In this document: one piece after another, positions 23,045 to 55,415 of the stretch
How the letters are laid out: each line of letters begins with the position of its first letter
Numbering within the stretch: position 1 is the first letter of the stretch
Program-made: the position numbers and the translations under genes
Assembly: GCA_023249475.1 (NCBI GenBank)
Contig: JAHFCO010000001.1
Location: forward strand, 1-64,000
Direction: 5' to 3'
Source: Bacillota bacterium
GTDB lineage: Bacteria > Bacillota_I > Bacilli_A > Erysipelotrichales > Erysipelotrichaceae
Length of the DNA: 64,000 nt
The notes under the pieces: generated by a model
Database searches by the model: none
What the model saw: the letters and a program-made list of their open reading frames with translations, nothing else
Told to the model about the DNA's origin: nothing

Positions 23045-23724
23045 TCGATGTAGCCTCCATCATGCAGGTCCGCCATGATATGGCCGTCTTGAAGGGCGAT
23101 CGTCCGTTTGCGGAAAGAGTTGACCATGCTGATGTCATGGGTGACCATCAGGATCGTGGTTCCTTCTTCCCGGTTGATTTTCTCCAGTAGACGGATGATG
23201 TCGGCGGATTTCGCCGGATCCAGGTTCCCGGTCGGTTCATCGCAGACCAAGACTTTCGGCCGGTTGGCGATGGCGCGCGCGATCGCGGTGCGTTGCTGCT
23301 GTCCGCCGGAGAGGCTCGATGGAAAATCATTGGCTTTATCGGCCAAATCCACCAGACTCAGGACTTCCCTGACCCGCTGTCTTGCCTTCAATACGGGGGT
23401 ATTCGTGATTTCCAATGCGAAATGCACGTTTTCGAAGATGGTTTTGTGTTCCAGTAATCTAAAATCCTGAAAAACCACGCCGATGCTTCGGCGATACAAC
23501 GGAATTTTTCGTGGTTTCAGCTTCGCGAGATCCACCCCTGCGACTTCGACCGACCCCTTCGTCGCCTTCTCTTCGGCGTCCAAAAGCTTGATCAGCGTGG
23601 ATTTACCGGACCCCGTCGGTCCGATGATGTAGACGAATTCTCCCTGTTCGATCAACAAATTGATATTATAGAGCGCATTGACTCCGTTTTTATAGGTCTT
23701 GGAAACATCTTTGAATTTCAGCAT
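23041..23724 (-). CDS. ftsE: Cell division ATP-binding protein FtsE
   Basis: ABC-type ATPase subunit of FtsEX. Walker A GPTGSGKSTL is at about 35-44, Q-loop FQDFRLL near 84, signature LSGGQQQR near 136, Walker B VLVCDEPTGNLDP near 156 and the switch His in VTHD. The start at 23724 (MLKFKDVSK) has AGGAAG 8 bases upstream. Counting from a TTG eight codons earlier would give a longer N-terminus that FtsE does not normally have. First gene of the ftsE-ftsX-M23-58aa operon. Confidence 0.95.
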   Translation of the reverse strand: MLKFKDVSKTYKNGVNALYNINLLIEQGEFVYIIGPTGSGKSTLIKLLDAEEKATKGSVEVAGVDLAKLKPRKIPLYRRSIGVVFQDFRLLEHKTIFENVHFALEITNTPVLKARQRVREVLSLVDLADKANDFPSSLSGGQQQRTAIARAIANRPKVLVCDEPTGNLDPAKSADIIRLLEKINREEGTTILMVTHDISMVNSFRKRTIALQDGHIMADLHDGGYIE

Positions 23725-23747
23725 GCGGTCACTTCCTATCTGCGTCA

Positions 23748-23775
23748 ATTATAACACAATAATTTTCGAGACCAA
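23748..23775 (-). promoter_or_regulatory. Candidate ftsE promoter
   Basis: Minus strand TTGGTC (23770-23775), 16 bases, TATAAT (23748-23753), 24 bases before the ftsE ATG. A sigma-A-type promoter read directly from the sequence. Confidence 0.55.
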
Positions 23776-23902
23776 CCCCGTAGCCGAAAACACACACGAT
23801 AACACGTATGTTTCATCTTTCTCTTTTCTTTGCGTTCGGTTACTTGATTTGAAGTCCGAACCATCTAGTGCTAAAGTAACAATAATCCTGAATACGATTT
23901 TT

Positions 23903-23927
23903 TGCAACTATTTCCATTCAGGTCGTA
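23903..23927 (+). promoter_or_regulatory. Candidate autoregulated ECF promoter
   Basis: TGCAAC (23903-23908), 15 bases, CGTA (23924-23927) upstream of the ECF sigma gene resembles the AAC...CGTA pattern of ECF promoters such as those of Bacillus SigW, with spacing about one base short. It would give the sigma factor control over its own operon. Confidence 0.4.
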
Positions 23928-23947
23928 TCTATCCAAGTGAGGGCGCC

Positions 23948-24463
23948 ATGAACGACATCCATACCGAATTCGAGAAAATCTACCGGGCGAGTTTTCCTTC
24001 GCTCAGCAAGTATGTGTTGTTCCGCGTTGCCCAAGCCAGCGATATGGAGGACCTTCTTCAGAATGTCTATACCGATTTCTACCGCAACGTATTGATGAAG
24101 AAGAAGGAAGTCGACGACGTGGATGCCTATCTGATGCAGATGACCTTGAACGAATTGAAAAAATACTACCGTTTCAAGAAGAAAGCGCCGATCACCCTGA
24201 TCGACGAAGACGACAACGCGTGGGTGCAGGAAATCCCCGATGCGGACAACCCCCATCTCCACGTGATCGAGAGAAGCACTTTGGAAGAGATCGAAACCGC
24301 CCTCAAACGACTCGATTTCCCCCAGCAGCAGGTCTTGATCGCGAAACTGAAGTTGGAGATGACGTTCGCGGAGATCGCGCTTTCCCTGCGCGTGAATGAG
24401 AATACGATCAAGGCACGCTACTACCGTGCCTTGGAAAGACTCCAAAAGGAGGTGGATCAGTAA
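23948..24463 (+). CDS. ECF-type RNA polymerase sigma factor
   Basis: A 171-residue sigma-70-family protein with only regions 2 and 4. Region 2 spans about 10-60 (SLSKYVLFRVAQASDMEDLLQNVYTDFYRN) and region 4 about 115-165 (LDFPQQQVLIAKLKLEMTFAEIALSLRVNENTIKARYYRAL, a clear helix-turn-helix). I chose the ATG at 23948; the longer in-frame reading upstream has no protein-like character and covers the candidate ECF promoter. The stop overlaps the RsgI-like gene start by one base (TAATG), so the two are coupled. Probably a SigI/ECF-like stress or envelope sigma factor; the stimulus is unknown. Confidence 0.9.
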   Translation: MNDIHTEFEKIYRASFPSLSKYVLFRVAQASDMEDLLQNVYTDFYRNVLMKKKEVDDVDAYLMQMTLNELKKYYRFKKKAPITLIDEDDNAWVQEIPDADNPHLHVIERSTLEEIETALKRLDFPQQQVLIAKLKLEMTFAEIALSLRVNENTIKARYYRALERLQKEVDQ

Positions 24464-25425
24464 TGAATCAATTAAAAAAGAGCCTCGATGCGGCGTTCCT
24501 GGATGAAGACCGGGTGTTTGCGAAGATCGAGAACAAGATCAACCGCCGACCGAAGGCCCGACGCACATTTTCCTTGGCGATGGTCGCTGCGACCGTCGCG
24601 CTTGCCCTCTTGCTTGGCATGGCGCGTCTCTTGTCCCCGATGAACGTCGTCGCCGGGGTCGTCACGGTCGACCTGAACCCCAGTTTGAGGATCGAATTGT
24701 CCAAGGACTATACCGTACTGGATGTCAGCGGCGTGAACGCCGAGGCGCAAAGCATGGATCTGAGCTCGCTGAAGGGCTTACCCATCCAGGAAGCCTTGAT
24801 GGAAATCGTCCGCCTAACGATCGAAGCGGGATACCTCGATCCGCTGGCCTTGACCTCGGATTACATTCTGATCACGACCGTCTCTTATGACGGGAACGAC
24901 CAGACCTTCAATCTGGACCTCAAGGACTTACTGGAAAAAGTCAAGACGGAAACACCGTCGCTCGACGGGTTCAACCTCGCCTTCATGCAGGCTGAGAAAC
25001 AGGATCTAGAGGATGCGGAGGATTCCGATCTCCCGCTGTGGCTTTATCTCTTAAGTAAAAACAATCCGGATGTCGTCAGTTCCCCGACCAGTACCGTACA
25101 GGATTATTTCGAAGATGAGGACCTGAAAACCGAATTCGAAAACGAGTTTGGCGAAGTGCTGGAAGATGATCATGAAATCGATTTGGAGGATTTGGAAGAA
25201 GCCTTGGATGAACTCGAAGAACATGGCGTCGATGTGAGTGAATATCGCCGTCGCCTGGCGACCTCGGGCGTCGACTTGAACGCATTGAAGTCCGAGATCC
25301 TCGTCCAGTTGGATCGGATCGAAGAAAACGAGGTCGACGATGACGATGATGAAATCTCGCAGGACAACGACGATGACGAAGAGGACGATGAGGATGACGA
25401 AGAGGATGAAGAAGATGACGATTAA
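24463..25425 (+). CDS. RsgI-like anti-sigma factor with acidic C-terminal tail
   Basis: A single-pass membrane protein expected to hold the upstream sigma factor inactive. A short cytoplasmic N-terminus (about 34 residues) is followed by a membrane helix (about 37-57). The extracytoplasmic stretch VVTVDLNPSLRIELSKDYTVLDVSGVNAEAQSM closely matches the conserved periplasmic core of RsgI proteins. A helical acidic region follows, and the last 30 residues (from about 291) are almost all Asp/Glu. AGGAGGTGGATCAGTA precedes the ATG, and the stop of the sigma gene overlaps it. The sensing domain differs from carbohydrate-binding RsgI forms; the acidic tail could bind cations. Confidence 0.82.
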   Translation: MNQLKKSLDAAFLDEDRVFAKIENKINRRPKARRTFSLAMVAATVALALLLGMARLLSPMNVVAGVVTVDLNPSLRIELSKDYTVLDVSGVNAEAQSMDLSSLKGLPIQEALMEIVRLTIEAGYLDPLALTSDYILITTVSYDGNDQTFNLDLKDLLEKVKTETPSLDGFNLAFMQAEKQDLEDAEDSDLPLWLYLLSKNNPDVVSSPTSTVQDYFEDEDLKTEFENEFGEVLEDDHEIDLEDLEEALDELEEHGVDVSEYRRRLATSGVDLNALKSEILVQLDRIEENEVDDDDDEISQDNDDDEEDDEDDEEDEEDDD

Positions 25426-25440
25426 GAGAGGAACCCCCCA

Positions 25441-26169
25441 ATGAAAAAATTACGCAACCTACTCCAGATTACGCTCGTGCTCTTCTTGATGGCCGGGTGT
25501 ACAAGCGCCGACTTCAATGCTTTCATGTATGGAAAACCTTCGGCCGTTCTCTCGGGCGCTGAAGATTCATCGGATACCAAGAGCGGTCCTTCCGTTCTGA
25601 GTGCGGGCGAGGACACGGAGACCTCTTCGACCAAACCGGCCGGCGAGACGACGGATACCGTTTCTTCTTCGACGAAACCGGTCAATACGACGGAAGATAC
25701 CGTCACATCCTCGACCAAGCCCGCGGGCGATGAGGATGAGGATGATGACTTTGATTCCTTCAAAGGTTGGTTCAGAGGGATCACCGCAGGCGGCATCTTG
25801 GTTGAACTCGCCGCGACCACATCGACCGGAGTCGATACCGTGACATCGGCGACAGGCAAGACCACGACCGTGACTTCGGGTGAAGTCACCACCTTCCCCC
25901 TCTCCCCGACCGTTTGGATCAAGATCGACGACAAGATCGCCGCGTTGCTTGTGAGTGATCTTACTGTCGGCGATTGGATCGAAATCACCTTACGCGATGG
26001 CGTCGTCGTCGGCATCGAACTTGAAAACGATCAAGATGAAGATGACGATGATGACGATGATGATGAAGATGATGATGATGATGAAGATGAAGATGATGAG
26101 GATGAAGATGAAGACGATGAAGAGGATGATGAAGACGAAGAGGAAGACGATGAAGAGGATGACGACTAA
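25441..26169 (+). CDS. Acidic-tailed lipoprotein linked to the sigma/anti-sigma pair
   Basis: A secreted lipoprotein with signal peptide and lipobox LMAGC (Cys near residue 20). Residues about 60-98 contain three imperfect 14-residue repeats built on SSTKPxxxTxDTVT. A small folded domain follows (about 105-195: GWFRGITAGGILVELA...VWIKIDDKIAALLVSDLTVGDWIEITLRDGVVVGIELE), resembling DUF5666-type OB-like domains. The last 46 residues, from about 197, are Asp/Glu apart from one Gln. GAGAGG lies upstream and the gene is 15 bases after the anti-sigma gene. Function unknown; the shared acidic tail and operon position suggest a common extracellular ligand. Confidence 0.75.
   Translation: MKKLRNLLQITLVLFLMAGCTSADFNAFMYGKPSAVLSGAEDSSDTKSGPSVLSAGEDTETSSTKPAGETTDTVSSSTKPVNTTEDTVTSSTKPAGDEDEDDDFDSFKGWFRGITAGGILVELAATTSTGVDTVTSATGKTTTVTSGEVTTFPLSPTVWIKIDDKIAALLVSDLTVGDWIEITLRDGVVVGIELENDQDEDDDDDDDDEDDDDDEDEDDEDEDEDDEEDDEDEEEDDEEDDD
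26029..26166 (+). repeat. GATGAT/GAAGAT low-complexity tract encoding the acidic tail
   Basis: A run of GAT, GAC, GAA and GAG codons, 46 in all but one, at the 3' end of the lipoprotein gene. A shorter tract of the same kind closes the anti-sigma gene (25333-25422). Such trinucleotide tracts are prone to slippage, and in-frame length changes would alter tail length without a frameshift. Confidence 0.8.
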
Positions 26170-27117: not shown

Positions 27118-27534
27118 ATGAACATGCGGCGACGTATCGTATTTATTCTTTATGTGGCATGGATCCTTCTGATTCTGGGGTTCACCCTTCAAAACGGGGA
27201 AACCTCCACGACGACCAGTCAGTGGTATGTGGAAGCGGTCCATGGATTCTTACTGAAGATCGATCTGCAGGTGTCGTTGGACCTGTTGACGACGATCATC
27301 CGCAAAGGGGCGCACTTCGGCGAATATGCGGTGTTGGGCGGGTTGAGTTCGATGAATGCGCGGATGAATCATAACCGGTTGTTCTATCTCAGCGCCCTCT
27401 TGCCTTTCCTCGATGAGACGATCCAGACGCAGGTCGACGGAAGAGCCGGTCGGTTCAGCGACGTCCTGATCGATTTAAGCGGATATTTGCTTGGTTACCT
27501 GATCGGACGAATGACACAAAAAAATGCGCGTTAG
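27118..27534 (+). CDS. VanZ family membrane protein
   Basis: A small VanZ-like membrane protein of about 138 residues with four hydrophobic segments and the family motifs RKGAHFGEYAVLG and DETIQTQVDGRAGRFSDVLIDLSGYLLG. VanZ was first described as conferring low-level teicoplanin resistance; most chromosomal members have unknown roles. Two ATGs are possible: 27118, and 27124, which has better spacing from GGAAGG. The stop codon lies inside a terminator hairpin shared with the convergent yhfW-like gene. Confidence 0.85.
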   Translation: MNMRRRIVFILYVAWILLILGFTLQNGETSTTTSQWYVEAVHGFLLKIDLQVSLDLLTTIIRKGAHFGEYAVLGGLSSMNARMNHNRLFYLSALLPFLDETIQTQVDGRAGRFSDVLIDLSGYLLGYLIGRMTQKNAR

Positions 27535-27543
27535 CGCATTTTC
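27517..27543 (-). terminator. Terminator shared by the yhf operon and the vanZ-like gene
   Basis: AAAATGCGC-GTTA-GCGCATTTT (27521-27542). The minus-strand side ends in seven T and is the stronger direction. Both convergent stop codons (27531-27533 minus, 27532-27534 plus) fall in the loop. Confidence 0.85.
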
Positions 27544-28754
27544 CATGTTAAGAAGGGTTGAGCGAAGCTTTCCCCGTTTTGAGGCGGGGGACAATCGAAC
27601 CAGTCGCAGACGCTAGCCCCGACATCGGACATCGTGTTGCGCTTTCCCAGTCGGACGCCGTGGGTCCCTCGTTGATAGGCAAGCAGCGGGACATATTCGC
27701 GGGTATGCCGGTTATGACCGATCTCCGGGTCGTTGCCATGGTCCGCCATGACGATCAAGAGGTCCTTCTCATCCAATAAGGACAGGATTTCTGCGAGGTT
27801 CCGATCGGCGATTTCCAACAATTCCTTATACCATTTCGTATTCATGCTATGTCCGGCCAAATCGGTTTCCTGGACGTTGGTGATGATGAACCCGTGCGAC
27901 ATCGCCTTGATTTCATTGATCGTCAGACGCAGCACTTCTTCGCTGTTGACGCAGGAAACGCTTTTCCCGTAGGGGTTGGCGACGATGTCGGCGACTTTGC
28001 CTAAGAGAACGGTCGGGATGTTTTTCGTTTTCAGTAAAGACGGGACCTGGACGCTCGCATCGACGCCATAGCCCAGATGCAGGACCTGATAGCCTTGCAG
28101 GTAGGACTTGGTCCGTACAGCGACGTTTCCGATGTAGCGGTCTTCTTTGACTTCCTGGGCGCTTAAAATATCATCGATCGTGTTCCCCGTCCCCCCGAAA
28201 GGGATGACGCGGTTCAACGTGACGACGCTCCGTACGACCCGGGCGATTTCAAGAAGTTTTTCGAAAGGCATGAAGTCCAAAGGCGCGATACAATTGATCG
28301 CTTGTCCGAGGTCGGAATCGATGTTGTCGGCGACGGCGCAATAATCTTCGACCAAAAAGTAAGTAAGTTTGTCCGTCCCTTTTTCTTCGACTTTGTATCC
28401 GGCATGAACCAAAGCGTTCTTGACGGGGATCAATTGGTCGTTGAGGCACTGCAGGACCGGTTTTTTGGGAAATGTACCCAAGATCTCTTGATGACCCATG
28501 AAGGTATCGGCCCCATCGTGCATCAAGGAAGATTTGCCTGTGTTCGCTAACGGGTCAAAATGCATGAACCGGCTTTCGAATCCGGCGGCGTTCATCAGTC
28601 CGAGCTTCTGTAAGGTCGGGAGTTTGAGGTCGGGATAGACGGTCAGGATGCTTTTGAGTGTATTGGCATTTACATCCGCAGGTCGGGTGTCACGGGTGTC
28701 TTCCATCGCCCCGATGCCGAAGCCATCCAAAACGATGACGATGAAACGGTTCAT
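27531..28754 (-). CDS. yhfW: YhfW-like phosphopentomutase/alkaline-phosphatase-superfamily enzyme
   Basis: A 407-residue metal-dependent enzyme related to phosphopentomutase (DeoB). Metal-binding motifs of the superfamily are present: IVLDGFGIG at the N-terminus, the GADTFMGHQEI loop, NVQETDLAGH and MADHGNDPEIGHNRHTREYVPLL. The E. coli YhfW is of almost the same length and similarly annotated. The start overlaps the yhfX stop by four bases (ATGA). Last gene of an eight-gene operon whose other members are all orthologous to the E. coli yhfS-yhfZ set, which supports YhfW over a true DeoB. No substrate is known; a phosphorylated sugar or amino compound is an inference. Confidence 0.85.
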   Translation of the reverse strand: MNRFIVIVLDGFGIGAMEDTRDTRPADVNANTLKSILTVYPDLKLPTLQKLGLMNAAGFESRFMHFDPLANTGKSSLMHDGADTFMGHQEILGTFPKKPVLQCLNDQLIPVKNALVHAGYKVEEKGTDKLTYFLVEDYCAVADNIDSDLGQAINCIAPLDFMPFEKLLEIARVVRSVVTLNRVIPFGGTGNTIDDILSAQEVKEDRYIGNVAVRTKSYLQGYQVLHLGYGVDASVQVPSLLKTKNIPTVLLGKVADIVANPYGKSVSCVNSEEVLRLTINEIKAMSHGFIITNVQETDLAGHSMNTKWYKELLEIADRNLAEILSLLDEKDLLIVMADHGNDPEIGHNRHTREYVPLLAYQRGTHGVRLGKRNTMSDVGASVCDWFDCPPPQNGESFAQPFLTWKMR

Positions 28755-29902
28755 AGTCGATAGCCGTGGGCGTCGAACATTCCAAGAAGGATCGGTTCTT
28801 CGCCACGGGGGTCGATGAGGGCGACGTGGCTGCGGGTCGTGAAGATCTGCGTACGGAAACTGCAGAGTACGGTCGAACTGACCGGATGGACGCCGTCGAC
28901 CTTCAAGGTATAATCGATGCTATCGATGCTGGGTCCGTGGATCAGGGCTCTTTCACGGACGCCGTCGCGGTGGACGACCATCGCGTTTTTCAGGTTGGAA
29001 CGGCGATAATATCCGCCCCCGTAGGCATAACTCGTACCGTTCACCGTGTGCGAGATTTCCGTGAGATAAAGCAGCGTCGGTACTTCCCCGTCGCTGTGGA
29101 AGGCATGATAAGGGGTCGTCCCGGTCAAGGCATGCCCGGGTTCGACGGTCGTCGCATGGTTTTCCGCCGCAAGTCGCATGCTGGCGTAGGTATTGGACGA
29201 GGGGGTGTTGACTTCCTTGATCGTACATCCCAGTGATTCCAGCTTATCCTTCGCTTTCAGAAGGAGGTCGAAATTCGCGGTCTTTTCGATTTTCCCGCTC
29301 TTTTCGTTATAAAGCATGCATGGAAACGACGTGACGCCTTCGATGCGGACATGGCTCAGCGCTTTCGCCGCTGCGCAGACGCATTCCAGTTCGTCCAGGG
29401 TGAAACCGCCTTGTTGGCCGTCGTAGATCAGGCAACTGTCATCCGCGACCTTCACCATGATCGACTGGAGGATGTCGTGACGTTTCGCGATTTCGTTGAT
29501 TTCTTGAAGCTTTTCGATGGAATAGACCGTGAAATAACGGACGCCGTAGGGGACCAGGCGTTCAAGGACGGACTTCGGGGTTTGGACAAGGTGTCCGACG
29601 TTCCATAGTTTCAATCCATGCGCCGCCAGATGGAGCGCTTCGCGATAATCCACCGCGACCGCACCGTCATAGCCCATGTCTTCCAACATTTCGGCGATTT
29701 CGGCGTTGCGTCCGATCTGCTTGCTCATGTAGAGGCAATTCAATCCGTGTTTCTTGGCTTCGTCCAAGACCAGTTTCGCGTTGTCAAGCAGACCCGGGAC
29801 GTCCAGGATATAGGTATCGGGATCCAGTGTGCCTTGTTGGTGCAGTTTGATCGCCGCGTCCAACAATTTCGGATTCCGTTCCATGACTTTCTCTAAAAAC
29901 AT
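28751..29902 (-). CDS. yhfX: YhfX-like PLP enzyme (alanine-racemase N-terminal fold)
   Basis: A 383-residue protein matching YhfX, a PLP-dependent enzyme of the fold-type III (alanine/ornithine racemase) group. Sequence marks are YILDVPGLLDNAKLVLDEAKKHGLNCLYMSKQIGRN near residue 31-66 (the expected PLP-lysine region), GYDGAVAVDYREALHLAAHGLKLWNVGHL, and a C-terminal beta domain with EPGHALTGTTPYHAF and YAYGGGYYRRSN. It overlaps the yhfS start region by 10 bases and the yhfW start by four. Likely a racemase or lyase acting on an amino acid; the substrate is unknown. Confidence 0.85.
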   Translation of the reverse strand: MFLEKVMERNPKLLDAAIKLHQQGTLDPDTYILDVPGLLDNAKLVLDEAKKHGLNCLYMSKQIGRNAEIAEMLEDMGYDGAVAVDYREALHLAAHGLKLWNVGHLVQTPKSVLERLVPYGVRYFTVYSIEKLQEINEIAKRHDILQSIMVKVADDSCLIYDGQQGGFTLDELECVCAAAKALSHVRIEGVTSFPCMLYNEKSGKIEKTANFDLLLKAKDKLESLGCTIKEVNTPSSNTYASMRLAAENHATTVEPGHALTGTTPYHAFHSDGEVPTLLYLTEISHTVNGTSYAYGGGYYRRSNLKNAMVVHRDGVRERALIHGPSIDSIDYTLKVDGVHPVSSTVLCSFRTQIFTTRSHVALIDPRGEEPILLGMFDAHGYRL

Positions 29903-31008
29903 GATTTCCCTTCTTTCGTTGCCGCATCCAGGCTTTCGCGCAGGATACGAAGGACCGTTTCCGCTCCGGAGCGCATCGGATTGATGCGGATCATCCGTTG
30001 CTTCAGCGTTTTGTCCGCTTTTAAAAACGTACCGGAGACACGATAGAACATCGGTGCGATTTCATATTTCGATTCGGCTCCGACCGGATGCGGGGCGGCG
30101 CCGAGGCGTTGGGCATGGATCAAGACCTGCTCGGCGATTTCTTCGTCGAATTCCACCAGCAACACCTTGGATTGGGCGTTGGCGATGAAGGCGGACTTGA
30201 TGCCGTGAAGCTCGTGGTTGTTGAGTCTGTCGCAGCACTCCGAGGTCACCGTCGCTTGTAAAGCCAAGGCCACCGGGGCATATACCATCCCGCGAAGGAC
30301 TTCCATCGCTTCGAACCCCTGCACCTGCGAGCCGCCGGAGTAGTTGATTTTATTGATCTTGTCGCACAAGGCTTGCTTGCCGACGACGATCCCGACCCCT
30401 TCGGGTCCAAGGAGTTTGAAGGCGGAGAACGCGGAGAGATCCGCCCCGCATTCGACCCCGATCTTTTCGATCTTCATGACCGCGTAGTTGTCGTCGACGA
30501 TGATCGGTAGATCGCAGGCGGATTTGAACCGTCGGATCACTTCTTCAAGGTCGTAGCGGTCGTCGAGTTTCTGGCGTGTCGTTTGGACGAGGATGAAATC
30601 CAAGCCTTCTTCCCGACAAGCTTGAATGCAGGCGTCGGCGTCGTGGAAATCGACGGCGACCGTCTCGATGTTCATCATCTCGAAGGTGCTTTCCGTCGTC
30701 GAATAGACCGGTGCGTCATGGATCAAGGCTTTGCGCTTCTTGCCGAGGCAGGTCGCGAAAGAGAGGCGCAATGCGCCGGTTCCCGATCCGCGAACCAGGA
30801 CCGCGCTTTCCGTTTGAAAGAAACGGGCCAGCACTTTTTCCACTTTCAGTGTCGTATCGGGTTTGTTGTTGGGGGATTTCACGCCTAAATCCCCGGTCTG
30901 AAGGAATTCCAATCCGCCGAATTCACGGCAGATGCAATCGACCAGGGAGAATTGTTTCCGTGCGGCTTCTTCCATGGAAATGGAGGATAAAGGGTAGGTT
31001 TCGATCAT
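29893..31008 (-). CDS. yhfS: YhfS-like PLP-dependent aminotransferase-fold enzyme
   Basis: A 371-residue fold-type I PLP enzyme. The pattern VRGSGTGALRLSFATC (phosphate-binding turn), LPIIVDDNYAVMKIE (Asp for the PLP ring) and FSAFKLLGPEGVGIVVG (PLP-lysine in AFK) support an aminotransferase or cystathionine-lyase-like role. The length matches E. coli YhfS. It is coupled to php upstream (four-base overlap) and yhfX downstream (10 bases). With YhfX it forms a two-PLP-enzyme pathway; the substrate is not readable. Confidence 0.84.
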   Translation of the reverse strand: MIETYPLSSISMEEAARKQFSLVDCICREFGGLEFLQTGDLGVKSPNNKPDTTLKVEKVLARFFQTESAVLVRGSGTGALRLSFATCLGKKRKALIHDAPVYSTTESTFEMMNIETVAVDFHDADACIQACREEGLDFILVQTTRQKLDDRYDLEEVIRRFKSACDLPIIVDDNYAVMKIEKIGVECGADLSAFSAFKLLGPEGVGIVVGKQALCDKINKINYSGGSQVQGFEAMEVLRGMVYAPVALALQATVTSECCDRLNNHELHGIKSAFIANAQSKVLLVEFDEEIAEQVLIHAQRLGAAPHPVGAESKYEIAPMFYRVSGTFLKADKTLKQRMIRINPMRSGAETVLRILRESLDAATKEGKSCF

Positions 31009-31883
31009 ACGGTGTTTCCTCCTAGGAATCGGTTGGGGTTGTCGGATAGGATGCGTTGTAGCTGTTCTTCCGTGACGTTGCGCTTCTTTAGTTCAGGGAT
31101 GAAGGTATCGAAGAGGTAGTGATAGCCGATTCCGCCGTGGGTGGCGAGATTGCTTTTACGGGTGATGTCCATCGATAAGAAGAGTTGGTCGATGTATCCG
31201 AGATCGATCAATTTGACGATCCAGTCCAGACGGGTTTCGTCCGGTAGGTAGTTGTTTTTCCCGATCGTGTCGAAACCGACGTTGACGCCGCTTTTCAGTA
31301 GACGTACGATCGAATCGAAATCGTTCTTCAGATCCACATGGCTGATCAGGACTTTATCGAGGTCGACGCCATGGTTGCGTAACAGGTCGACTTGCTGGTC
31401 CCCCATCGTCCCTAATGTGGTATGGGTGAGGATGGGCACACCGGTGTTTTTGTGGGCGACGCAGGCGGCGAGGAAGACTTTTTCTTCGTTGGGTGTGATG
31501 ACGTTGAGGCTGGTGCCGATCTCCCCGATGACGCTTGCGCATCGAAGACCTTCGATGCCTTCCGTGATTTCCTTCGTCATGAGTTCGGCCAGTTGGTCGA
31601 TTGTAAGTTCGGCCACTTCCGACGGAAGGAAGGGATCTTTATAGTAGCCCGTTGAAAAGAGAAACTGGATGTTCGTTTGTTTTTCGAGTTCCAGAACCTG
31701 TCGGACATCGCGTCCCATCCCCCGGTTCGAACAGTCCAGGATCCGGACGACGCCGTGGTTCTTGAGATCGGCGACTTCCTGTAACCCGTCCGTCAACAGG
31801 TCCATCTTGCAGTCGAGATCCTTCTTGGGTCCGGAAAGGTCGATGGCCATGTGTTCATGGATCAGCGTGAGGTTGGTCAACAT
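31005..31883 (-). CDS. php: Phosphotriesterase homology protein (PHP/YhfV)
   Basis: A 292-residue amidohydrolase-superfamily protein of the phosphotriesterase type, the same length as E. coli Php. Metal-binding motifs: LIHEHMAIDLSG at the N-terminus (HxH), VIGEIGTS (bridging Glu), ILTHTTLGT, LISHVDLK, and the late SMDITRKSN Asp. E. coli Php has no confirmed physiological substrate. It overlaps the PRD gene by 7 bases and yhfS by four. In this operon it could hydrolyse a phosphate ester or lactone intermediate. Confidence 0.88.
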   Translation of the reverse strand: MLTNLTLIHEHMAIDLSGPKKDLDCKMDLLTDGLQEVADLKNHGVVRILDCSNRGMGRDVRQVLELEKQTNIQFLFSTGYYKDPFLPSEVAELTIDQLAELMTKEITEGIEGLRCASVIGEIGTSLNVITPNEEKVFLAACVAHKNTGVPILTHTTLGTMGDQQVDLLRNHGVDLDKVLISHVDLKNDFDSIVRLLKSGVNVGFDTIGKNNYLPDETRLDWIVKLIDLGYIDQLFLSMDITRKSNLATHGGIGYHYLFDTFIPELKKRNVTEEQLQRILSDNPNRFLGGNTV

Positions 31884-32245
31884 GGTTCGTTTTGTCCTTG
31901 TTGACCCAGGTAATGAATCAGGTGAAGCAGGAAATACCCTTCTTCTTCCTTGGGTGGCTTGATTTCTTCCAAGAGACGCTTCAGCATCTCGTTGGCTTTC
32001 GCGCAGGCCGGATCGTTGAGTAACTGGTCCATGACGAATTCAGGGATCGTTTCGATCGATTGTCCCTGGTTCTCGCGGATGTACATGCCGGCGAAGTGGG
32101 TTATGAAACGTTCGGCGGCTTCTTCGTCGAATGAATAGCCGAACTCGTTTTCGTAGATTGAGCAAAGTCTTTGGATCTTGTCGGCTTGGTCGATCGTGAT
32201 CATCGACACGCGCACCATCAAGTCCAAACGGTTTTGAATGGTCAT
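31877..32245 (-). CDS. yhfY: YhfY-like PRD-domain protein
   Basis: A 122-residue protein resembling a single PTS-regulation domain (PRD), as in E. coli YhfY. Two histidines typical of PRDs are visible, in ERFITHFAGMY and FLLHLIHYLG. A stand-alone PRD has no DNA-binding part and may act by protein contact, perhaps with the adjacent YhfZ regulator. It starts 8 bases after yhfZ and overlaps php by 7. HprK is encoded elsewhere in the window, so an active PTS phospho-relay probably exists. Confidence 0.8.
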   Translation of the reverse strand: MTIQNRLDLMVRVSMITIDQADKIQRLCSIYENEFGYSFDEEAAERFITHFAGMYIRENQGQSIETIPEFVMDQLLNDPACAKANEMLKRLLEEIKPPKEEEGYFLLHLIHYLGQQGQNEPC

Positions 32246-32253
32246 GGCTCTCC

Positions 32254-33180
32254 TTAGTATCTGGGAATCATCTTCCCGTGGGCGACAAGGTGCTGGATGC
32301 TGAGCACGGTGTCGACGTTGATCAATTGCGTCAAAAGGTTGCAGAGCTCGGTGGCGCTGTTTCTGGCGACGATGACCGCGATCGTATCGTTTTCATCGAT
32401 CCCTTCGATCTGGATGTAGCGGATCCCCGGATAGGATTCCCGGATTTCATCTTCATTCCATACCGCGGCGTCGATTTCCCCGCTTTTCAGTTTATTGAGG
32501 ATCTGGTTGTAGTTGAGGTTGATGTACTTCACTTTATGGTCTTTGGTGACATGATAGGTCAGGTTGGTCTGGTCGATCGAGTCGTTGTCGATCCCGATCC
32601 GCATCCCATCCTCGATCCCCTTCGCGTATTGGTCGTTGAGGACGATGACGTGGTTGCTGAGGTAGGATTTGGGTCCGAACTCTTTGACGATCCGGATGTC
32701 CGCGCCTTGGTTGACGCTGTCGAGGAACGCCAGTTTGGAGACCAGGGCGAAATCGTAACGGGCTTCCATCAACAAAGACAAACGTTTGCGCGCACCGCGC
32801 ATGTAGGCCATGTTGACGGGGATGTCGTATTCGTTCTCCATGGCGGAAATGATGCCGGTCGCCAAGCCTTCGTAATGTTTCGAGTACGGTAAGGGCATGA
32901 CGCCGACCAAGGAAGTGATGTTTGCGAATTCAAGCAAGGTCTTCATGTTCTTATGCATTAAAAACGTCCCCATGTGACCCCTGGATTCCAGGGTGATCGC
33001 CTGGGTTTGCGTCAGCAGCTTCATCGCGTTTTGAAGGGTCCCGCGGGCGACCGACGTCTCCTCGGAAAGTTCGCTGAACGTCGGGATTTTGTCGCCGACC
33101 TTGAGTTGGAGAAGGATCTTGGCCAAGGTCATCGAGACCAGGCCGTTTTTGTTCATGATCAGGTTCTTTACGTCGCTCAT
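32254..33180 (-). CDS. yhfZ: YhfZ-like transcriptional regulator (GntR-type HTH)
   Basis: A 308-residue regulator. Residues about 15-75 form a winged helix of GntR type (VGDKIPTFSELSEETSVARGTLQNAMKLLTQTQAITLESRGHMGTFL). Residues from about 85 match the YhfZ ligand domain, which looks like a periplasmic-binding-protein fold (SLVGVMPLPYSKHYEGLATGI...KLKSGEIDAAVWNEDEIRESYPG). It lies behind yhfT with a 14-base-pair hairpin between. It probably controls the operon; the two matching palindromes at the yhfU promoter are the natural candidate sites. Confidence 0.85.
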   Translation of the reverse strand: MSDVKNLIMNKNGLVSMTLAKILLQLKVGDKIPTFSELSEETSVARGTLQNAMKLLTQTQAITLESRGHMGTFLMHKNMKTLLEFANITSLVGVMPLPYSKHYEGLATGIISAMENEYDIPVNMAYMRGARKRLSLLMEARYDFALVSKLAFLDSVNQGADIRIVKEFGPKSYLSNHVIVLNDQYAKGIEDGMRIGIDNDSIDQTNLTYHVTKDHKVKYINLNYNQILNKLKSGEIDAAVWNEDEIRESYPGIRYIQIEGIDENDTIAVIVARNSATELCNLLTQLINVDTVLSIQHLVAHGKMIPRY

Positions 33181-33202
33181 ACGATGTCCTTTCGATGATT
33201 AG

Positions 33203-33235
33203 AATAAAGAGGAAGAGTCGATCTTCCTCTTTATT
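33203..33235 (-). terminator. Strong stem-loop between yhfT and yhfZ
   Basis: A perfect 14-base inverted repeat (33203-33216 with 33222-33235) and a five-base loop, rich in A/T at the base of the stem. It sits in the only sizeable gap inside the operon (33181-33250). It could be a partial terminator or an RNA-stability element that sets yhfUT apart from yhfZY-php-SXW. The poly-T tail is modest (TTTATTCT). Confidence 0.65.
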
Positions 33236-33250
33236 TTACACTATCCTAGA

Positions 33251-34576
33251 TTACTTTACGACGATGGGAAACAAGCCGATTAAATGCAGGATGTTGACGA
33301 GGATGCCCATCGTGATCGCGCCGATCGGACCGATCGCCATGGTCGACAACGGCTTCTTGGAAGCTTGGTTGAGGAAGTAGAGGCCGATGACCCAGATGTA
33401 GCCGATCGAAGGGGCGATGGCGTTGGCCGCCAGCATCCCGCCGACCAACAAGGCGAGGTCGAGGACCTTGCTCATCGCGGTACGGGTATTGTCGCCTAGA
33501 TCCTTCATGCCCGGGAATTTATCCATGCCTTGGGCGATGAATCCAAGCAACAAGACTTCGACGACCATGATCAATGCGCCGGTAACGAAGGAGCCGGCCA
33601 TGCCCATGACGCCCATGTTGATGAAGAGGATCGCGGGAACGTGGATCAATTTGGTCCCTGCGGGGGAATAGACGCCGGAAACGATCGCGGTCGTCATGAC
33701 GAGGGGGATGAAGCCTAAGGTTCTGCCTAACGCGACGATCGCGGCTTGGGCGTATTGGCCCTCGGCCGTCAAGGTCAAGGAAGCCGGGCCTTCGGCGATC
33801 AATAACAACGTGGTGGCAAGCGCGACGATCCCGCCGCTAAATGCCAAGATCAGCATGTTCTTCTTGATGCGGTCGATGTTTTTCGAGAATACGGCGAAGG
33901 CCGTGGCGGCGTTGCCGTCTTCGGTTCTCTTCTGTCTCGCCGCGACGACGATCATCGCAACGATACCGACCAATAATGCCATACCATCCGAGTTCAGGGC
34001 GATGGTGACGCCGTTGACGACGAATTTACCGTAAAGCATCGTGATTTGTTTGACCAACATGATCAGGACAAGCACGGTACCGCCGGAGACGATGCCGGCT
34101 TGATAAGCGACGGCGATCGCGGGGAAGACGCTGAAGGCGAGGATGATCAAGCTTCCGACGGTCCCTAAGCTACCGGTGAAGTCGATCGGTAGGATCTTAA
34201 GCGCATCGATGATGGCTTGCATACCGAACAACAAGACGATTCCGAACAAGGCACCGACCGCGGTCGCGTACCATTTGCTGTTCCCGTTTTCGGAGAACAT
34301 GGTCCCGATGATGTCGGTCGCCAACATGATGGTGTGGACGATGATGATCTTCCCGGCGATGGACGTCGGCAGACCGAAGCCGATGACCAAACCGAACGAC
34401 AAGGCGAAACTGGTGGCGAACAGGGTCTTGCGATCCATCGCCTTGCTGAAGTAAGCCGGGAACATGGGGCGAAGTCCGTCATGGAATACCGCGATGTTCT
34501 GATTGGCGAGATAGGCGCAAATCCCGCCCAAGGCCGCCATGACGATGATCGTCAATGCGTTGATGCTAAATAACAT
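33251..34576 (-). CDS. yhfT: YhfT-like membrane transporter
   Basis: A 441-residue integral membrane protein with about 12 hydrophobic segments, matching the length and character of E. coli YhfT, a predicted transporter. Characteristic pieces are GGICAYLANQNIAVFHDGLRPMFPAYFSKAMDRKTL at the N-terminus, VIGFGLPTSIAGKIIIVHTIML, and LGFIAQGMDKFPGMKDLGDNTRTAMSKVLD. It is 12 bases after yhfU, so they are co-transcribed. Inferred to import the substrate that the YhfS/X/W/Php enzymes handle. Confidence 0.85.
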   Translation of the reverse strand: MLFSINALTIIVMAALGGICAYLANQNIAVFHDGLRPMFPAYFSKAMDRKTLFATSFALSFGLVIGFGLPTSIAGKIIIVHTIMLATDIIGTMFSENGNSKWYATAVGALFGIVLLFGMQAIIDALKILPIDFTGSLGTVGSLIILAFSVFPAIAVAYQAGIVSGGTVLVLIMLVKQITMLYGKFVVNGVTIALNSDGMALLVGIVAMIVVAARQKRTEDGNAATAFAVFSKNIDRIKKNMLILAFSGGIVALATTLLLIAEGPASLTLTAEGQYAQAAIVALGRTLGFIPLVMTTAIVSGVYSPAGTKLIHVPAILFINMGVMGMAGSFVTGALIMVVEVLLLGFIAQGMDKFPGMKDLGDNTRTAMSKVLDLALLVGGMLAANAIAPSIGYIWVIGLYFLNQASKKPLSTMAIGPIGAITMGILVNILHLIGLFPIVVK

Positions 34577-34588
34577 TCTCTTTCCTCC

Positions 34589-34948
34589 TTATTTTTTGAG
34601 AATTTCATCCAATACTACGGGAATGACTTTGTCGGCGTCGTAGTTGACGAACCCGAAACATTTTTTGCCATTCCGAACCGCTGATCGAATCTCCTCTTCC
34701 TGCATAATCTTCCCCGGAATGCTGATGGAGACACAGTGCTGCGGACCGACGAGGCCGATGGCCATCGCTAATGCCCCTCCGGCGCCTGTCGCACATGCTC
34801 CGAAATAGTACTGGGCTTGATTGGTTTGAATCGCCAGGGCTGCTTCGATATCGCTTTTGATCGATACTTCGACTCTGCCGCACCCATACTTGGTGATGAG
34901 ATTCGCCAAAATCTGCTTATCCATTTGACCACCGACCACGATTTTCAA
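34589..34948 (-). CDS. yhfU: YhfU-like DUF2620 protein
   Basis: A DUF2620 protein of about 120 residues (LKIVVGGQMDKQ... to ...VVLDEILKK). It has a glycine-rich centre (FGACATGAGGALAMAIGLVG) and belongs to the YhfU family, whose members accompany yhfT. The perfect AGGAGGT ribosome site is 7 bases from the TTG at 34948 but only one base from an in-frame ATG at 34954, so I favour the TTG start. A longer start at 35038 would span the promoter. First gene of the operon. Some similarity to PTS IIB-like small proteins is possible but unproven. Confidence 0.82.
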   Translation of the reverse strand: MKIVVGGQMDKQILANLITKYGCGRVEVSIKSDIEAALAIQTNQAQYYFGACATGAGGALAMAIGLVGPQHCVSISIPGKIMQEEEIRSAVRNGKKCFGFVNYDADKVIPVVLDEILKK

Positions 34949-34961
34949 GATCATACCTCCT

Positions 34962-34981
34962 AAATACAGAATACTGTATTT
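34962..34981. promoter_or_regulatory. Operator-like palindrome 1 at the yhfU promoter
   Basis: AAATACAG-AATA-CTGTATTT, a perfect 8-base inverted repeat lying just downstream of the predicted transcription start and close to the yhfU ribosome site. Core pattern ATACA-N6-TGTAT. Probable repressor site, most simply for YhfZ. Confidence 0.65.
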
Positions 34982-34993
34982 TGTACTAAAGAC

Positions 34994-35022
34994 ATTATCA
35001 TCTTCAACCCTGGATTTGTCAA
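34994..35022 (-). promoter_or_regulatory. yhfU operon promoter
   Basis: Minus strand TTGACA (35017-35022), 17 bases, GATAAT (34994-34999). The -35 is a consensus match and the spacing is ideal, so this is a strong sigma-A promoter. The start site is predicted near 34987, inside or beside palindrome 1. Confidence 0.75.
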
Positions 35023-38363: not shown

Positions 38364-38381
38364 GCGAATCACCATTTTTTA
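38354..38381. terminator. Bidirectional terminator between ppk1 and nagA
   Basis: AAAATGGTGA-GCGAA-TCACCATTTT (38354-38378) with T runs leaving on both strands. The ppk1 stop lies in the stem, and the nagA stop (38379-38381) abuts it. Confidence 0.88.
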
Positions 38382-39506
38382 GTTGATTTTCTTCCCTCCC
38401 ACGAATGTGGCGAGGAGCTTCATCGAGGGATCTACGATCAACAGATCCGCTTTCTTATCGACCTTGATCGATCCGAGCCGATCGTCACACTGAAGGAATC
38501 GAGCGGGATAGAGACTGGCCATCTTCACGGTTTCATCGAACGGAAGAATCTCCCGTTCCAATAGTTTACATAGATTCTGATAGAGCGTGAAGTAACATCC
38601 TTGGATCCCGCCATGTTCATCCAGGATCCGGCAATCTTCTCCTACCGTGCGGCGATGACCTTTCAGCGAATACTCGCCGGCGGGTTGTCCGGCCAAGGAG
38701 ACGGAATCGGAGACCAGGATGATTTTGTCGTGTTCCTTCACTCTCAAAATCAAGCGTACCATCTCTTCGCTGACATGGATGAAATCGGTGATCAGTTCGC
38801 ATACGATGTCGGGGTCCAACAGACCGACCCCCATCACTCCGACATCCCTCTGATGCATCACGCCCATATTGTTTCCGGTGTGGGTCAATGCATCGACGAG
38901 GTGCTTTTCCGTAAACTTCCTGAATTCGTTCGCCGTCATTAACGTATGTCCGGCGGAAACCTTGATCCCTTGTTTGTGGAGATATTCCATCCCTTCCATG
39001 GCCCCATCCAATTCCGGAGCGACCATGACGTAGCTCAATCGGTTTCCGCTGCGTCGGATCAATTCTTCCAGATGTTCGATCGAGGGTAGGTTAAGTTGCT
39101 TGTTGGGTTGACGATATCCCGCATACTGCAGGTTACTGAAATAGGCTTCGAGGTTCAATCCGAGAAACCTCGACCCGTTTTCTTTCGGCGTATAGTTCCT
39201 GATCGCGTCGTAGTGTTGCGGATCGATGCTGGGCAGGCAGGACGTGGTCCCTTGCTTCGCCATTTCAAGGAGAAAAAGATCGAGTTCGGTCTCATCAAGT
39301 TCAATATTGGGGTCCAACCGGCCTTTGTATCCGTGCAGATGGATATCCACCAGTCCCGGAAGAACCATGGCGTCCGAGGCATCGAGATCGATGATACCTT
39401 GATACTCATCCTTGGCGAGGATGCGTTTGATTTCACCGTCTTGGATTTCGAGATACCCATCGAGAAATCCCTCTTCCGTTAAGATTTTCCTACTTGCGAT
39501 GATCAT
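38379..39506 (-). CDS. nagA: N-acetylglucosamine-6-phosphate deacetylase
   Basis: Removes the acetyl group from GlcNAc-6-phosphate, feeding amino-sugar catabolism and wall recycling. The 375-residue amidohydrolase has the metal motif VDIHLHGYKG, the VSAGHTLMTANEF segment, LTHTGNNMGVMHQRD (NagA hallmark), FIHVSEEMVRLIL and LVSDSVSLAGQPAG with the catalytic Asp. No nagB lies beside it. It is upstream-flanked by the PHP phosphatase gene on the same strand, with a terminator between. Confidence 0.93.
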   Translation of the reverse strand: MIIASRKILTEEGFLDGYLEIQDGEIKRILAKDEYQGIIDLDASDAMVLPGLVDIHLHGYKGRLDPNIELDETELDLFLLEMAKQGTTSCLPSIDPQHYDAIRNYTPKENGSRFLGLNLEAYFSNLQYAGYRQPNKQLNLPSIEHLEELIRRSGNRLSYVMVAPELDGAMEGMEYLHKQGIKVSAGHTLMTANEFRKFTEKHLVDALTHTGNNMGVMHQRDVGVMGVGLLDPDIVCELITDFIHVSEEMVRLILRVKEHDKIILVSDSVSLAGQPAGEYSLKGHRRTVGEDCRILDEHGGIQGCYFTLYQNLCKLLEREILPFDETVKMASLYPARFLQCDDRLGSIKVDKKADLLIVDPSMKLLATFVGGKKIN

Positions 39507-49989: not shown

Positions 49990-50877
49990 TTAATGTCCTT
50001 GTGAACTATTGCATTTGAAATAGTCATATAATTCAAAGATATTGGTATATTTGACATATTTAGCAGGTAATCGAAAACCAAGTAGTTTTTCATATTCTCG
50101 CGCTCTAGTTTCATTCCCTCCACCATCTTCGAATATTGTGAAAATCCATTGTGCATTATGGTGGTCTTCATTGATATATTCAAAGTACCTTCTGTCTATA
50201 TCATTGTATGAATGTCCACATACAATGATCTTGTCGAATTCTAAATCGCCAATTTTTCGTTTAGCTGCTGTGTAATTATCTTCAAAATTTTTCAGATACC
50301 TACCACTAATATTTCCACACAACTCAGATAACTCATCAATTCGATATGGGTTACCAAGTTCCTCTTCAGCAAGCTCATATAAGCTCATGAAGTAATCTCC
50401 CTCTGGATCACTAAAATCTATAGTTCTGTTATGACCAATTACGACTTCAGTGTCTAATGTGCCATGAATATGGATAACTTCTCCAACATATCCAACTTTA
50501 TTTGGAGTCTGTGTGTAGTTAAATGAAAGTATTACTCCACAAAAGTCACTAAGTAAGTACATGAATTTCTTTTCAATTTCAACTTCATCTTGAGCAAACT
50601 CGATAAACTCTTTCAAATAATCATCAAGATTATTGAGTTTTTCTTGATAGAGTAATGAGTAATCGGCAATATCGTTTGGTACAATGCATGAAAGTGCATT
50701 TTCAAAATTCATCCAGAGACTCTCGTTTTCTTGAGAATGTAAATTCACTAACCCCATTTCGTAAAAATATGAAGCAATTTCCTGGTGATTACTTTCCATC
50801 CAATCACCAAATGTAGAATAACTTGTTCTTAGACCACATCCTAAGTCAAATCCATTCCCAATTATTAATAAGTTCAT
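49990..50877 (-). CDS. abiH: AbiH-type phage abortive infection protein
   Basis: A 295-residue protein with the AbiH family opening NLLIIGNGFDLGCGLRTSYSTFGDWM and the conserved FSYTQTPNKVGYVGEVIHIHGTLDTEVVIGHN-like core (here SFNYTQT...HIHGTL...VIGHN). The C-terminal IIVCGHSYNDIDRRYFEYI is also typical. Members, first described in Lactococcus, block phage multiplication by an unknown route; the fold resembles SIR2/NAD-binding-like domains. It is the last gene of the island operon, 85 bases after the DUF4145 gene, so it could have its own promoter. Confidence 0.88.
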   Translation of the reverse strand: MNLLIIGNGFDLGCGLRTSYSTFGDWMESNHQEIASYFYEMGLVNLHSQENESLWMNFENALSCIVPNDIADYSLLYQEKLNNLDDYLKEFIEFAQDEVEIEKKFMYLLSDFCGVILSFNYTQTPNKVGYVGEVIHIHGTLDTEVVIGHNRTIDFSDPEGDYFMSLYELAEEELGNPYRIDELSELCGNISGRYLKNFEDNYTAAKRKIGDLEFDKIIVCGHSYNDIDRRYFEYINEDHHNAQWIFTIFEDGGGNETRAREYEKLLGFRLPAKYVKYTNIFELYDYFKCNSSQGH

Positions 50878-50962
50878 CTTTCAATCTCCGCATAATTTCT
50901 TTACATCCTCTAGTATAAGTTCTTTTAATATTCAATTCAAATCTAAGTCTAGTCAGTCCCCA

Positions 50963-51868: not shown

Positions 51869-51882
51869 TTGATACTCCTTTC

Positions 51883-53889: not shown

Positions 53890-53903
53890 TTGATTTACCC
53901 CCT

Positions 53904-55007: not shown

Positions 55008-55021
55008 CTAGTGCTTACCTC

Positions 55022-55411
55022 CTAGACAGTTTGTTGAATTAACCATTCAATTACTTTCTGTGGATTTCTATGTAGAGAATACTGCTCATATAACTTTTCC
55101 ATTCCTCTAAGTAAATGAGCTTTAGTTAACTCTGGAAAGAATGAGTTTTTGCTAACATTGGTTCTTAGATTTTGCTTCACCATAAGATAGTATACCGATT
55201 CATCATCCCCAAAAACTGTGTGTTTATGATAATTCATTCCTGTGTTATCACGTAACTGATTCTGCCTAATATCTCTTGGATCACCACCCTCTTTAAGTGA
55301 TAATCCAATACATATTCTAATTACTGCTGCTTTAGTAGACAGTCTTAATCCATTCTGAATCTCTGTTATTTTTATTTCTAAATCCTGTGAAGTAATAAGT
55401 CTATCTGCCAC
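55022..55411 (-). CDS. dndE: DNA sulfur modification protein DndE
   Basis: A 129-residue DndE: small helical protein, with family-like segments LRLSTKAAVIRICIGLSL, GGDPRDIRQ and NYHKHTVFGDDESVYYLMVKQNL. DndE binds nicked double-stranded DNA and is needed for phosphorothioate insertion. It uses a GTG start, with GGGGGA about 9 bases upstream. It is four bases after dndD. Confidence 0.9.
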   Translation of the reverse strand: MADRLITSQDLEIKITEIQNGLRLSTKAAVIRICIGLSLKEGGDPRDIRQNQLRDNTGMNYHKHTVFGDDESVYYLMVKQNLRTNVSKNSFFPELTKAHLLRGMEKLYEQYSLHRNPQKVIEWLIQQTV

Positions 55412-55415
55412 TTAA

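What the first reader, a model, noticed from the sequence alone, without database searches (positions are those of the whole stretch)
27531..34954. Complete yhf pathway in a Gram-positive-type genome
All eight E. coli genes yhfS-yhfZ have a counterpart of matching length here, in a different order: U-T-Z-Y-php-S-X-W. Conservation of the full set across distant phyla points to a real catabolic pathway (transporter, two PLP enzymes, a phosphotriesterase-like hydrolase, a phosphomutase-like enzyme) whose substrate is unknown.
Basis: partly seen in the sequence, partly recalled or inferred. Interest (0 to 1): 0.7.

Follow-up and report, generated by a model that had tools for sequence, protein, structure and literature searches.

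The report
Complete yhf operon with phosphotransferase links
This gut-type bacterium carries all eight genes of an E. coli operon of unknown function, and comparing about 90 relatives suggests it imports and breaks down a phosphate-bearing amino-sugar compound, driven by the cell's phosphotransferase relay.

Summary
Eight tightly packed minus-strand genes (27531-34954), transcribed U-T-Z-Y-php-S-X-W, are orthologues of E. coli yhfS-Z (26-53% identity, invariant catalytic residues) in an Erysipelotrichaceae genome. The set is co-inherited in Bacillota, Spirochaetota, Fusobacteriota and 92% of complete E. coli genomes. Presence in Gram-positives is not new; the families carry names but no function, and I found no paper on one.

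(1) A ninth gene, a short amidase-signature protein (46/66 complete loci; fused to YhfT once; absent here). (2) NagB, glucosamine-6-phosphate deaminase, is the only strongly recurrent neighbour (18 loci). (3) YhfU (DUF2620) has the RpiB fold and an invariant CxTGxG cysteine, and sits beside YhfT in 75/77 loci. (4) YhfY, a lone PRD with invariant histidines, is found in every complete locus. (5) Four loci carry HPr, two of them also Enzyme I, inside the operon.

Best reading: a PTS-coupled import and catabolic operon for a phosphorylated amino-sugar conjugate ending at glucosamine-6-phosphate. PTS coupling is well supported, the hexosamine endpoint moderately, the exact substrate not. Whether Y and U carry phosphate to the substrate or only regulate is open.

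The parts
34589..34954 (-). YhfU (DUF2620): RpiB/LacAB-fold protein, 121 aa, invariant C54-x-T-G-x-G
   Evidence: DUF2620 3e-38; AF2 model pLDDT 96; top 23 structure matches all RpiB family, Z 8.6-13.3, next unrelated 7.3; Cys in 85/85
33251..34576 (-). YhfT: integral membrane protein, probable permease, 441 aa
   Evidence: Pfam YhfT 1e-134; helical membrane model pLDDT 90; no solid PDB match; adjacent to YhfU in 75/77 loci
33200..33238 (-). Intercistronic hairpin between yhfT and yhfZ, 17-nt arms, 5-nt loop
   Evidence: kept in relative L023 with an A-T to T-A compensatory change
32254..33180 (-). YhfZ: GntR-type regulator with ligand-binding domain, 308 aa
   Evidence: NCBIfam YhfZ_full 367.9 bits over cut-off 260
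31877..32245 (-). YhfY: stand-alone PRD (PTS-regulation domain), 122 aa, H50, R57, E101, H108
   Evidence: Pfam PRD 7e-8; H50, R57, E101 in 79/79 and H108 in 76/79 sequences
31005..31883 (-). Php: binuclear-metal TIM-barrel hydrolase, 292 aa, with K209/Y212/R242 at the phosphate-binding site
   Evidence: 45% identical to E. coli PHP (1bf6/4lef); ligands H9 H11 E121 H154 H182 D239 invariant and K209 87/87, Y212 84/87, R242 84/87
29893..31008 (-). YhfS: PLP fold-type I enzyme, K198, 371 aa
   Evidence: matches solved YhfS 4j8l at 5e-113; K198 in 96/96
28751..29902 (-). YhfX: PLP fold-type III (alanine-racemase-like) enzyme, K61, 383 aa
   Evidence: matches solved YhfX 4kbx at 2e-85; K61 in 83/83
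27531..28754 (-). YhfW: phosphopentomutase-like metalloenzyme, nucleophile T84, 407 aa
   Evidence: NCBIfam PRK12383 541.8 bits; D10, D298, H302, D338, H339, H350 in 83/83 and T/S84 in 83/83, aligned to DeoB
34962..35022 (-). Putative promoter (TTGACA-17-GATAAT) and 20-bp palindrome AAATACAGAATACTGTATTT, candidate operator
   Evidence: palindrome also in the 97%-identical relative L028; no binding shown

Best explanation
The operon encodes uptake and catabolism of a compound that joins an amino sugar to an amino-acid-like part, driven by the PEP:sugar phosphotransferase (PTS) relay, with glucosamine-6-phosphate as the output. Proposed steps: YhfT carries the substrate in; phosphate passes from HPr to the invariant histidines of the lone PRD protein YhfY and probably on to the invariant cysteine of its partner YhfU, so that the substrate is phosphorylated on or soon after entry. 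Where present, the amidase A removes an acyl group at once; Php opens a phosphate-bearing lactone or ester; YhfX (racemase type) and YhfS (lyase or aminotransferase type) process the amino-acid part; YhfW moves phosphate between C1 and the terminal carbon; NagB, operon-borne or housekeeping, turns glucosamine-6-phosphate into fructose-6-phosphate and ammonia. YhfZ senses an intermediate. Shown: orthology, operon structure, invariant catalytic residues, the RpiB fold of YhfU (predicted model), and genetic linkage to NagB, HPr and Enzyme I in relatives. Inferred: order of steps, phosphoryl path and substrate.
For: PTS link: HPr plus Enzyme I lie inside the operon in L079 (the only Enzyme I found in that genome) and in L145; HPr alone in L101 and L107, as extra HPr copies. 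YhfY is present in all uncut loci once five missed copies are read by eye. Y His and U Cys are invariant. Of the yhf genomes first tested, 21/22 have Enzyme I and 22/22 HPr. Hexosamine link: NagB is in 18 loci at several different positions (after W, after X, between X and A, before Z) and is 15 of 112 immediate neighbours, the next family 5; A sits beside glmM in C. polynesiense; all 23 yhf genomes tested encode a NagB homologue, 21 over the cut-off. Phosphorylated intermediates: YhfW keeps all DeoB ligands and the T/S nucleophile; Php keeps R242 and Y212 where a phospho-lactonase binds phosphate. Transport coupling: U/T adjacent in 75/77 and distance correlation 0.93; T-A fusion in [Clostridium] citroniae.
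Against: No Pfam EIIA, EIIB or EIIC domain is found in T, U or Y, and the YhfT model matches no solved transporter convincingly. NagB is absent from most operons, including this one and E. coli's, and is a common housekeeping gene. YhfU could be an isomerase rather than a phosphocarrier. Two genomes showed no Enzyme I over cut-off: the L095 MAG and G716 (L107), where the contig ends just after HPr. A is missing here. No substrate has been tested.
Confidence: 0.42

Rival explanations
1. PTS coupling is regulatory only. HPr phosphorylates the PRD protein YhfY, which tunes YhfZ or another regulator; YhfT is an ordinary secondary transporter and YhfU a small RpiB-like isomerase acting on a pathway intermediate.
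For: PRDs are known as PTS-controlled regulatory modules (established knowledge); Y is next to Z in 50/69 loci; YhfU has the RpiB fold and the CxTG cysteine.
Against: YhfY has no nucleic-acid-binding domain and lies next to U in 48/72 loci, staying with U-T rather than Z in the Bacillus-type order; U co-varies with T at 0.93, unlike a downstream enzyme; an operon-borne Enzyme I plus HPr is more than regulation alone would seem to need.
Confidence: 0.3
2. The pathway degrades a 2-amino-2-deoxy sugar acid or its lactone, like the D-glucosaminate route: Php opens the phospho-lactone, YhfX epimerises C2, YhfS eliminates ammonia, and YhfW and NagB serve side products.
For: Php resembles phospho-furanose lactonases; YhfS is remotely similar to a DgaE-like lyase (hhalign 89.6%); the DgaE-type enzyme DGL acts on D-glucosaminate-6-phosphate (PMC9529869); SFCGS/DUF4310 clusters pair a lone PRD and an RpiB-like Cys protein with DgaE and DgaF homologues.
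Against: No aldolase or dehydrogenase recurs in yhf loci; it does not explain an invariant mutase.
Confidence: 0.2
3. The set degrades an amino-acid lactone or amide such as N-acyl-homoserine lactone (lactonase, amidase, Cys/Met-type PLP enzyme).
For: PTE-family AHL lactonases, amidase-signature acylases and Cys/Met-type PLP enzymes exist (own knowledge; families).
Against: K209 and R242 of Php are absent from the lactonase/organophosphatase sequences aligned but present in 84-87 of 87 Php; phosphomutase, NagB and PTS links are unexplained.
Confidence: 0.04
4. Superficial grouping of distant paralogues with different active sites.
For: None found.
Against: Invariant catalytic residues, and all eight genes clustered in 55/66 uncut loci by the automatic count.
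Confidence: 0.01

Closest known systems
E. coli K-12 yhfS-yhfT-yhfU-php-yhfW-yhfX-yhfY-yhfZ operon
   Same: All eight genes orthologous, catalytic residues kept, one strand, compact; function unknown in both
   Different: Gene order; 26-53% identity; the E. coli copy lies beside the frl operon, the window copy between a small VanZ-like ORF and ppx/ppk
PTS permeases (EIIA/EIIB/EIIC) with HPr and Enzyme I
   Same: Linked HPr and Enzyme I in some loci; invariant-His protein plus invariant-Cys protein plus membrane protein
   Different: No EII homology by Pfam; the His protein is a PRD, the Cys protein has the RpiB fold, the membrane protein matches no solved EIIC
SFCGS/DUF4312/DUF4311/DUF4310 clusters with DgaE- and DgaF-like enzymes
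   Same: Lone PRD upstream of a small RpiB-like CGSGG protein, novel membrane proteins, metal hydrolase, PLP enzyme, no kinase
   Different: Membrane proteins not detectably related to YhfT; aldolase present; no mutase or racemase
RpiB / LacAB sugar-phosphate isomerases
   Same: Fold and CxTG cysteine loop of YhfU
   Different: YhfU lacks the N-terminal Asp-His and the His-Asn pair of RpiB and is about 30 residues shorter
Phospho-furanose lactonases (NF045706, Mycoplasma type)
   Same: PTE-family barrel; Arg and Tyr at the phosphate site
   Different: Far below the family cut-off; bridging residue Glu instead of Lys; K217 and K244 not kept
Phosphopentomutase DeoB
   Same: Metal ligands and Thr/Ser nucleophile of YhfW
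   Different: 136.7 bits against a DeoB cut-off of 341.2; middle (cap) region poorly alignable, so the substrate pocket probably differs

Membership tests
yhf operon | Orthologues of all eight genes in one cluster | tested here: met
yhf operon | Catalytic residues of YhfX, YhfS, Php, YhfW conserved | tested here: met
   K61, K198, six metal ligands, DeoB-type ligands and T/S84 invariant
yhf operon | Same reaction and substrate as the E. coli set | not testable with these tools
   no function found for E. coli either
PTS permease | Host genome encodes Enzyme I and HPr | tested here: met
   G000:C18 Enzyme I 749.6 bits, G000:C58 HPr 99.3 bits
PTS permease | Genetic linkage of HPr or Enzyme I to the operon | tested here: met
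   only in four relatives, not in the window
PTS permease | Homologous EIIA, EIIB and EIIC domains | tested here: not met
   no EII Pfam or NCBIfam match in T, U or Y
PTS permease | Phosphoryl transfer to His/Cys and to substrate | not testable with these tools
   residues invariant; needs biochemistry
RpiB/LacAB | Fold | tested here: met
   (predicted model)
RpiB/LacAB | Catalytic Cys-x-Thr-Gly loop | tested here: met
RpiB/LacAB | Ring-opening His and N-terminal Asp-His | tested here: not met
   absent in the consensus of 85 YhfU compared with E. coli RpiB; role of those RpiB residues from own knowledge
Phospho-furanose lactonase | Family score cut-off (NF045706, 630 bits) | tested here: not met
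   109.7 bits
Phospho-furanose lactonase | Phosphate ligands K217, K244, Y245, R275, Y278 | tested here: inconclusive
   Y245 and R275 kept, a Lys two residues from K244, others not; ligand list from own knowledge of MS53_0025
Phosphopentomutase (DeoB, TIGR01696) | Family score cut-off (341.2 bits) | tested here: not met
   136.7 bits; metal ligands are kept
Amidase signature family (protein A, relatives only) | Lys / cis-Ser / Ser triad, Ser residues 24 apart | tested here: met
   K48, S97, S121 invariant in 10; Pfam Amidase over cut-off in 3 of 4 scanned

The most novel reading that the evidence does not exclude
The Y-U-T module is a previously undescribed type of PTS permease: a lone PRD acts as phosphocarrier in place of EIIA, an RpiB-fold protein with an invariant cysteine acts in place of EIIB, and YhfT in place of EIIC, and it feeds a nine- or ten-gene amino-sugar pathway. 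The SFCGS/DUF4310 clusters would be a second branch of the same kind.
Probability: 0.28. Interest if true: 0.82.

Novelty: new variant of a known kind. Interest (0 to 1): 0.6.

Why it matters
The yhf operon is kept in 5,014 of 5,426 complete E. coli genomes, with solved structures for YhfX, YhfS and PHP, yet has no assigned function in anything found here. The comparison turns 'substrate unknown' into specific tests: HPr-dependent phosphorylation of YhfY and YhfU, glucosamine-phosphate chemistry for YhfW, an amidase step at import. If the phosphorelay is used for transport it would add a new architecture to the PTS, one of the best-studied uptake systems in bacteria.

Tried and rejected
YhfT as a known PTS EIIC: not supported; Foldseek best E 0.04 and VIA-align best Z 6.2 (VcINDY), both in the noise range; absence from the list does not exclude it. 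YhfT as a relative of DUF4310 or DUF4311: no signal by hhalign, but only two sequences per family were at hand. Php versus A as alternatives: only four uncut loci lack Php, too few to tell. Upstream pcrA-ligA-camS genes in Bacillus and other single neighbours: genomic context, not recurrent. NagA-like gene in the window: not recurrent elsewhere. Literature: eight searches, no paper on yhf function, DUF2620, YhfT or SFCGS clusters. Apparent loss of YhfY in five uncut loci was my own ORF-picking artefact; all have it.
Full report
What is there. The eight ORFs at 27531-34954 lie on the minus strand with gaps of 12, 70 and 8 nt followed by overlaps of 7, 4, 10 and 4 nt, which is typical of one operon. 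Pfam and NCBIfam name them as counterparts of the E. coli yhf genes. Pairwise identities to MG1655 run from 26% (YhfY) to 53% (YhfS) with matching lengths. The order of transcription is U-T-Z-Y-php-S-X-W, in E. coli Z-Y-X-W-php-U-T-S. The window lies in a 2.09-Mb, 60-contig genome; its nearest named relative is an Erysipelotrichaceae MAG, 97% identical in YhfS.

Are they orthologues with the same active sites? Yes. YhfX K61 (83/83), YhfS K198 (96/96), the six Php metal ligands (86-87 of 87), and the YhfW metal ligands (83/83) with a Thr or Ser nucleophile (83/83) are conserved over all loci, and the YhfW residues line up with DeoB.

Distribution. A scan of one genome per species (84,980 species) with a YhfS alignment confirmed 247 stretches; the best 80 come from Bacilli, Clostridia, Erysipelotrichia, Spirochaetales, Brachyspira and Sebaldella. 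Cetobacterium carries it on a megaplasmid, and 5,014 of 5,426 complete E. coli genomes hold at least 80% of the operon. In a sample of the window's own phylum it is patchy: YhfT in 13 of 392 genomes. In 66 loci not cut by a contig end, U, T and S are in 66, W and X in 65, Z in 64, Php in 62 and Y in 61; 55 have all eight. The five missing Y genes are present on inspection.

Most relatives carry a ninth gene, here called A, about 330 aa. It matches Pfam Amidase weakly, GatA at 1e-4, and has an invariant Lys / Ser / Ser set with the two serines 24 residues apart; that this spacing is the amidase-signature one is from own knowledge of FAAH. A is absent from the window genome and its closest relative by a profile search that finds it in positive controls. 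In [Clostridium] citroniae A is fused to the C-terminus of YhfT in one 768-aa frame, which suggests that it acts at or just after import. In C. polynesiense A lies directly downstream of glmM (glmM recognised by sequence, not by a family search).

NagB. Clustering all flanking genes gives one outstanding family, glucosamine-6-phosphate deaminase, in 18 loci, over the TIGR00502 cut-off in the four members scanned, and 15 of 112 immediate neighbours against 5 for the next family. It occurs after W, after X, between X and A, and upstream of Z, so it probably joined the operon more than once. All 23 yhf genomes tested have a NagB homologue somewhere. This points to glucosamine-6-phosphate as a product, an inference from association.

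YhfU. The AlphaFold model of YhfU (pLDDT 96) matches RpiB-type isomerases in the top 23 structural hits, Z 8.6-13.3, with the first unrelated hit at 7.3. Profile comparison aligns its invariant CxTGxG with the CGTG loop of RpiB (hhalign 62%). It lacks other RpiB catalytic residues. It is adjacent to YhfT in 75 of 77 loci and co-varies with it more than any other pair (0.93). That is how a transporter partner behaves, rather than a downstream enzyme.

YhfY and the PTS. YhfY is a PRD standing alone. Its H50, R57 and E101 are invariant in 79 sequences and H108 in 76, although it is the least conserved protein of the set (26% to E. coli). After seeing this I looked for HPr, which my 90-aa length filter had hidden. 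Four loci carry it: L079 has HPr and Enzyme I between Z and X, the only Enzyme I detected in that genome; L145, found afterwards in the same family, ends W-A-HPr-Enzyme I; L101 has HPr a few bp after W and L107 has W-NagB-HPr. In L079, L101 and L107 these are additional HPr copies. Of the first 22 yhf genomes tested, 21 had Enzyme I and 22 had HPr. The window genome has both. PTS coupling is therefore my firmest new inference.

Phosphorylated intermediates. Php aligns with phospho-furanose lactonase; of the phosphate-binding residues known to me for MS53_0025, Arg275 and Tyr245 are kept as R242 and Y212, with an invariant K209 two positions from Lys244. The lactonase and organophosphatase sequences aligned lack K209 and R242. 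With a phosphomutase and NagB in the set but no kinase gene, phosphate must enter elsewhere; the PTS would supply it.

Two modules. Distances of T, U and Php correlate at 0.82-0.93, and S, X, W, Z and A with each other at 0.63-0.84, but W against T, U or Php only 0.26-0.34. One Erysipelotrichaceae group has strongly diverged T, U and Php with ordinary S and W. T-U-Php may set substrate specificity, and S-X-W may be a common core. These correlations do not correct for shared species history.

A parallel. SFCGS/DUF4310 clusters have the same logic: lone PRD, small RpiB-like protein with CGSGG, new membrane proteins, a metal hydrolase, and DgaE- and DgaF-like enzymes, with no kinase (names of the last members by sequence recognition). 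YhfT is not detectably related to those membrane proteins.

Verdict. The comparative evidence supports a PTS-coupled import and catabolic operon converging on glucosamine-6-phosphate. Whether the relay phosphorylates the substrate or only regulates, and what the substrate is, cannot be settled from sequence.

Noticed in passing
window 49990-62912, minus strand: Low-GC island (about 33% against 53%) with DndA/SspA, DndE, DndD, DndC, PbeC and PbeA homologues, AbiH and a HEC-06/Orf5-type protein: a DNA phosphorothioation defence island, probably acquired horizontally.
   Followed up: partly
window 38379-39506, minus strand: NagA-like N-acetylglucosamine-6-phosphate deacetylase, 218.3 bits, just under the TIGR00221 cut-off of 225.65, 3.4 kb from yhfU; not recurrent near other yhf loci.
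   Followed up: partly
window 33200-33238: Hairpin in the T-Z gap conserved with a compensatory change in a relative (L023), possibly an attenuator or RNA-processing site that separates U-T from the rest.
   Followed up: partly
window 23699-26169, plus strand: A sigma-factor-like gene followed by two proteins with long Asp/Glu-rich C-terminal tails, one a lipoprotein.
   Followed up: no
L129, L130: SFCGS/DUF4310 clusters carry a lone PRD directly before an RpiB-like CGSGG protein; the Pfam model PF14272 also weakly hits RpiB itself.
   Followed up: partly
L055, L064, L068, L095, L022, L057, L086: A beta-lactamase-family serine hydrolase lies close to the yhf operon in seven loci by blastp clustering.
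   Followed up: no
L070, L071: The operon ends with a second php-yhfS pair after yhfW.
   Followed up: no
L040, L041, L046, L047, L051: Lacrimispora-type loci have glmS on the opposite strand close to the yhf operon, another glucosamine-phosphate gene.
   Followed up: no
L024, L025, L026, L060, L070, L074, L081, L096: A short zinc-ribbon membrane protein lies between yhfZ and yhfY in one Erysipelotrichaceae-type group.
   Followed up: no
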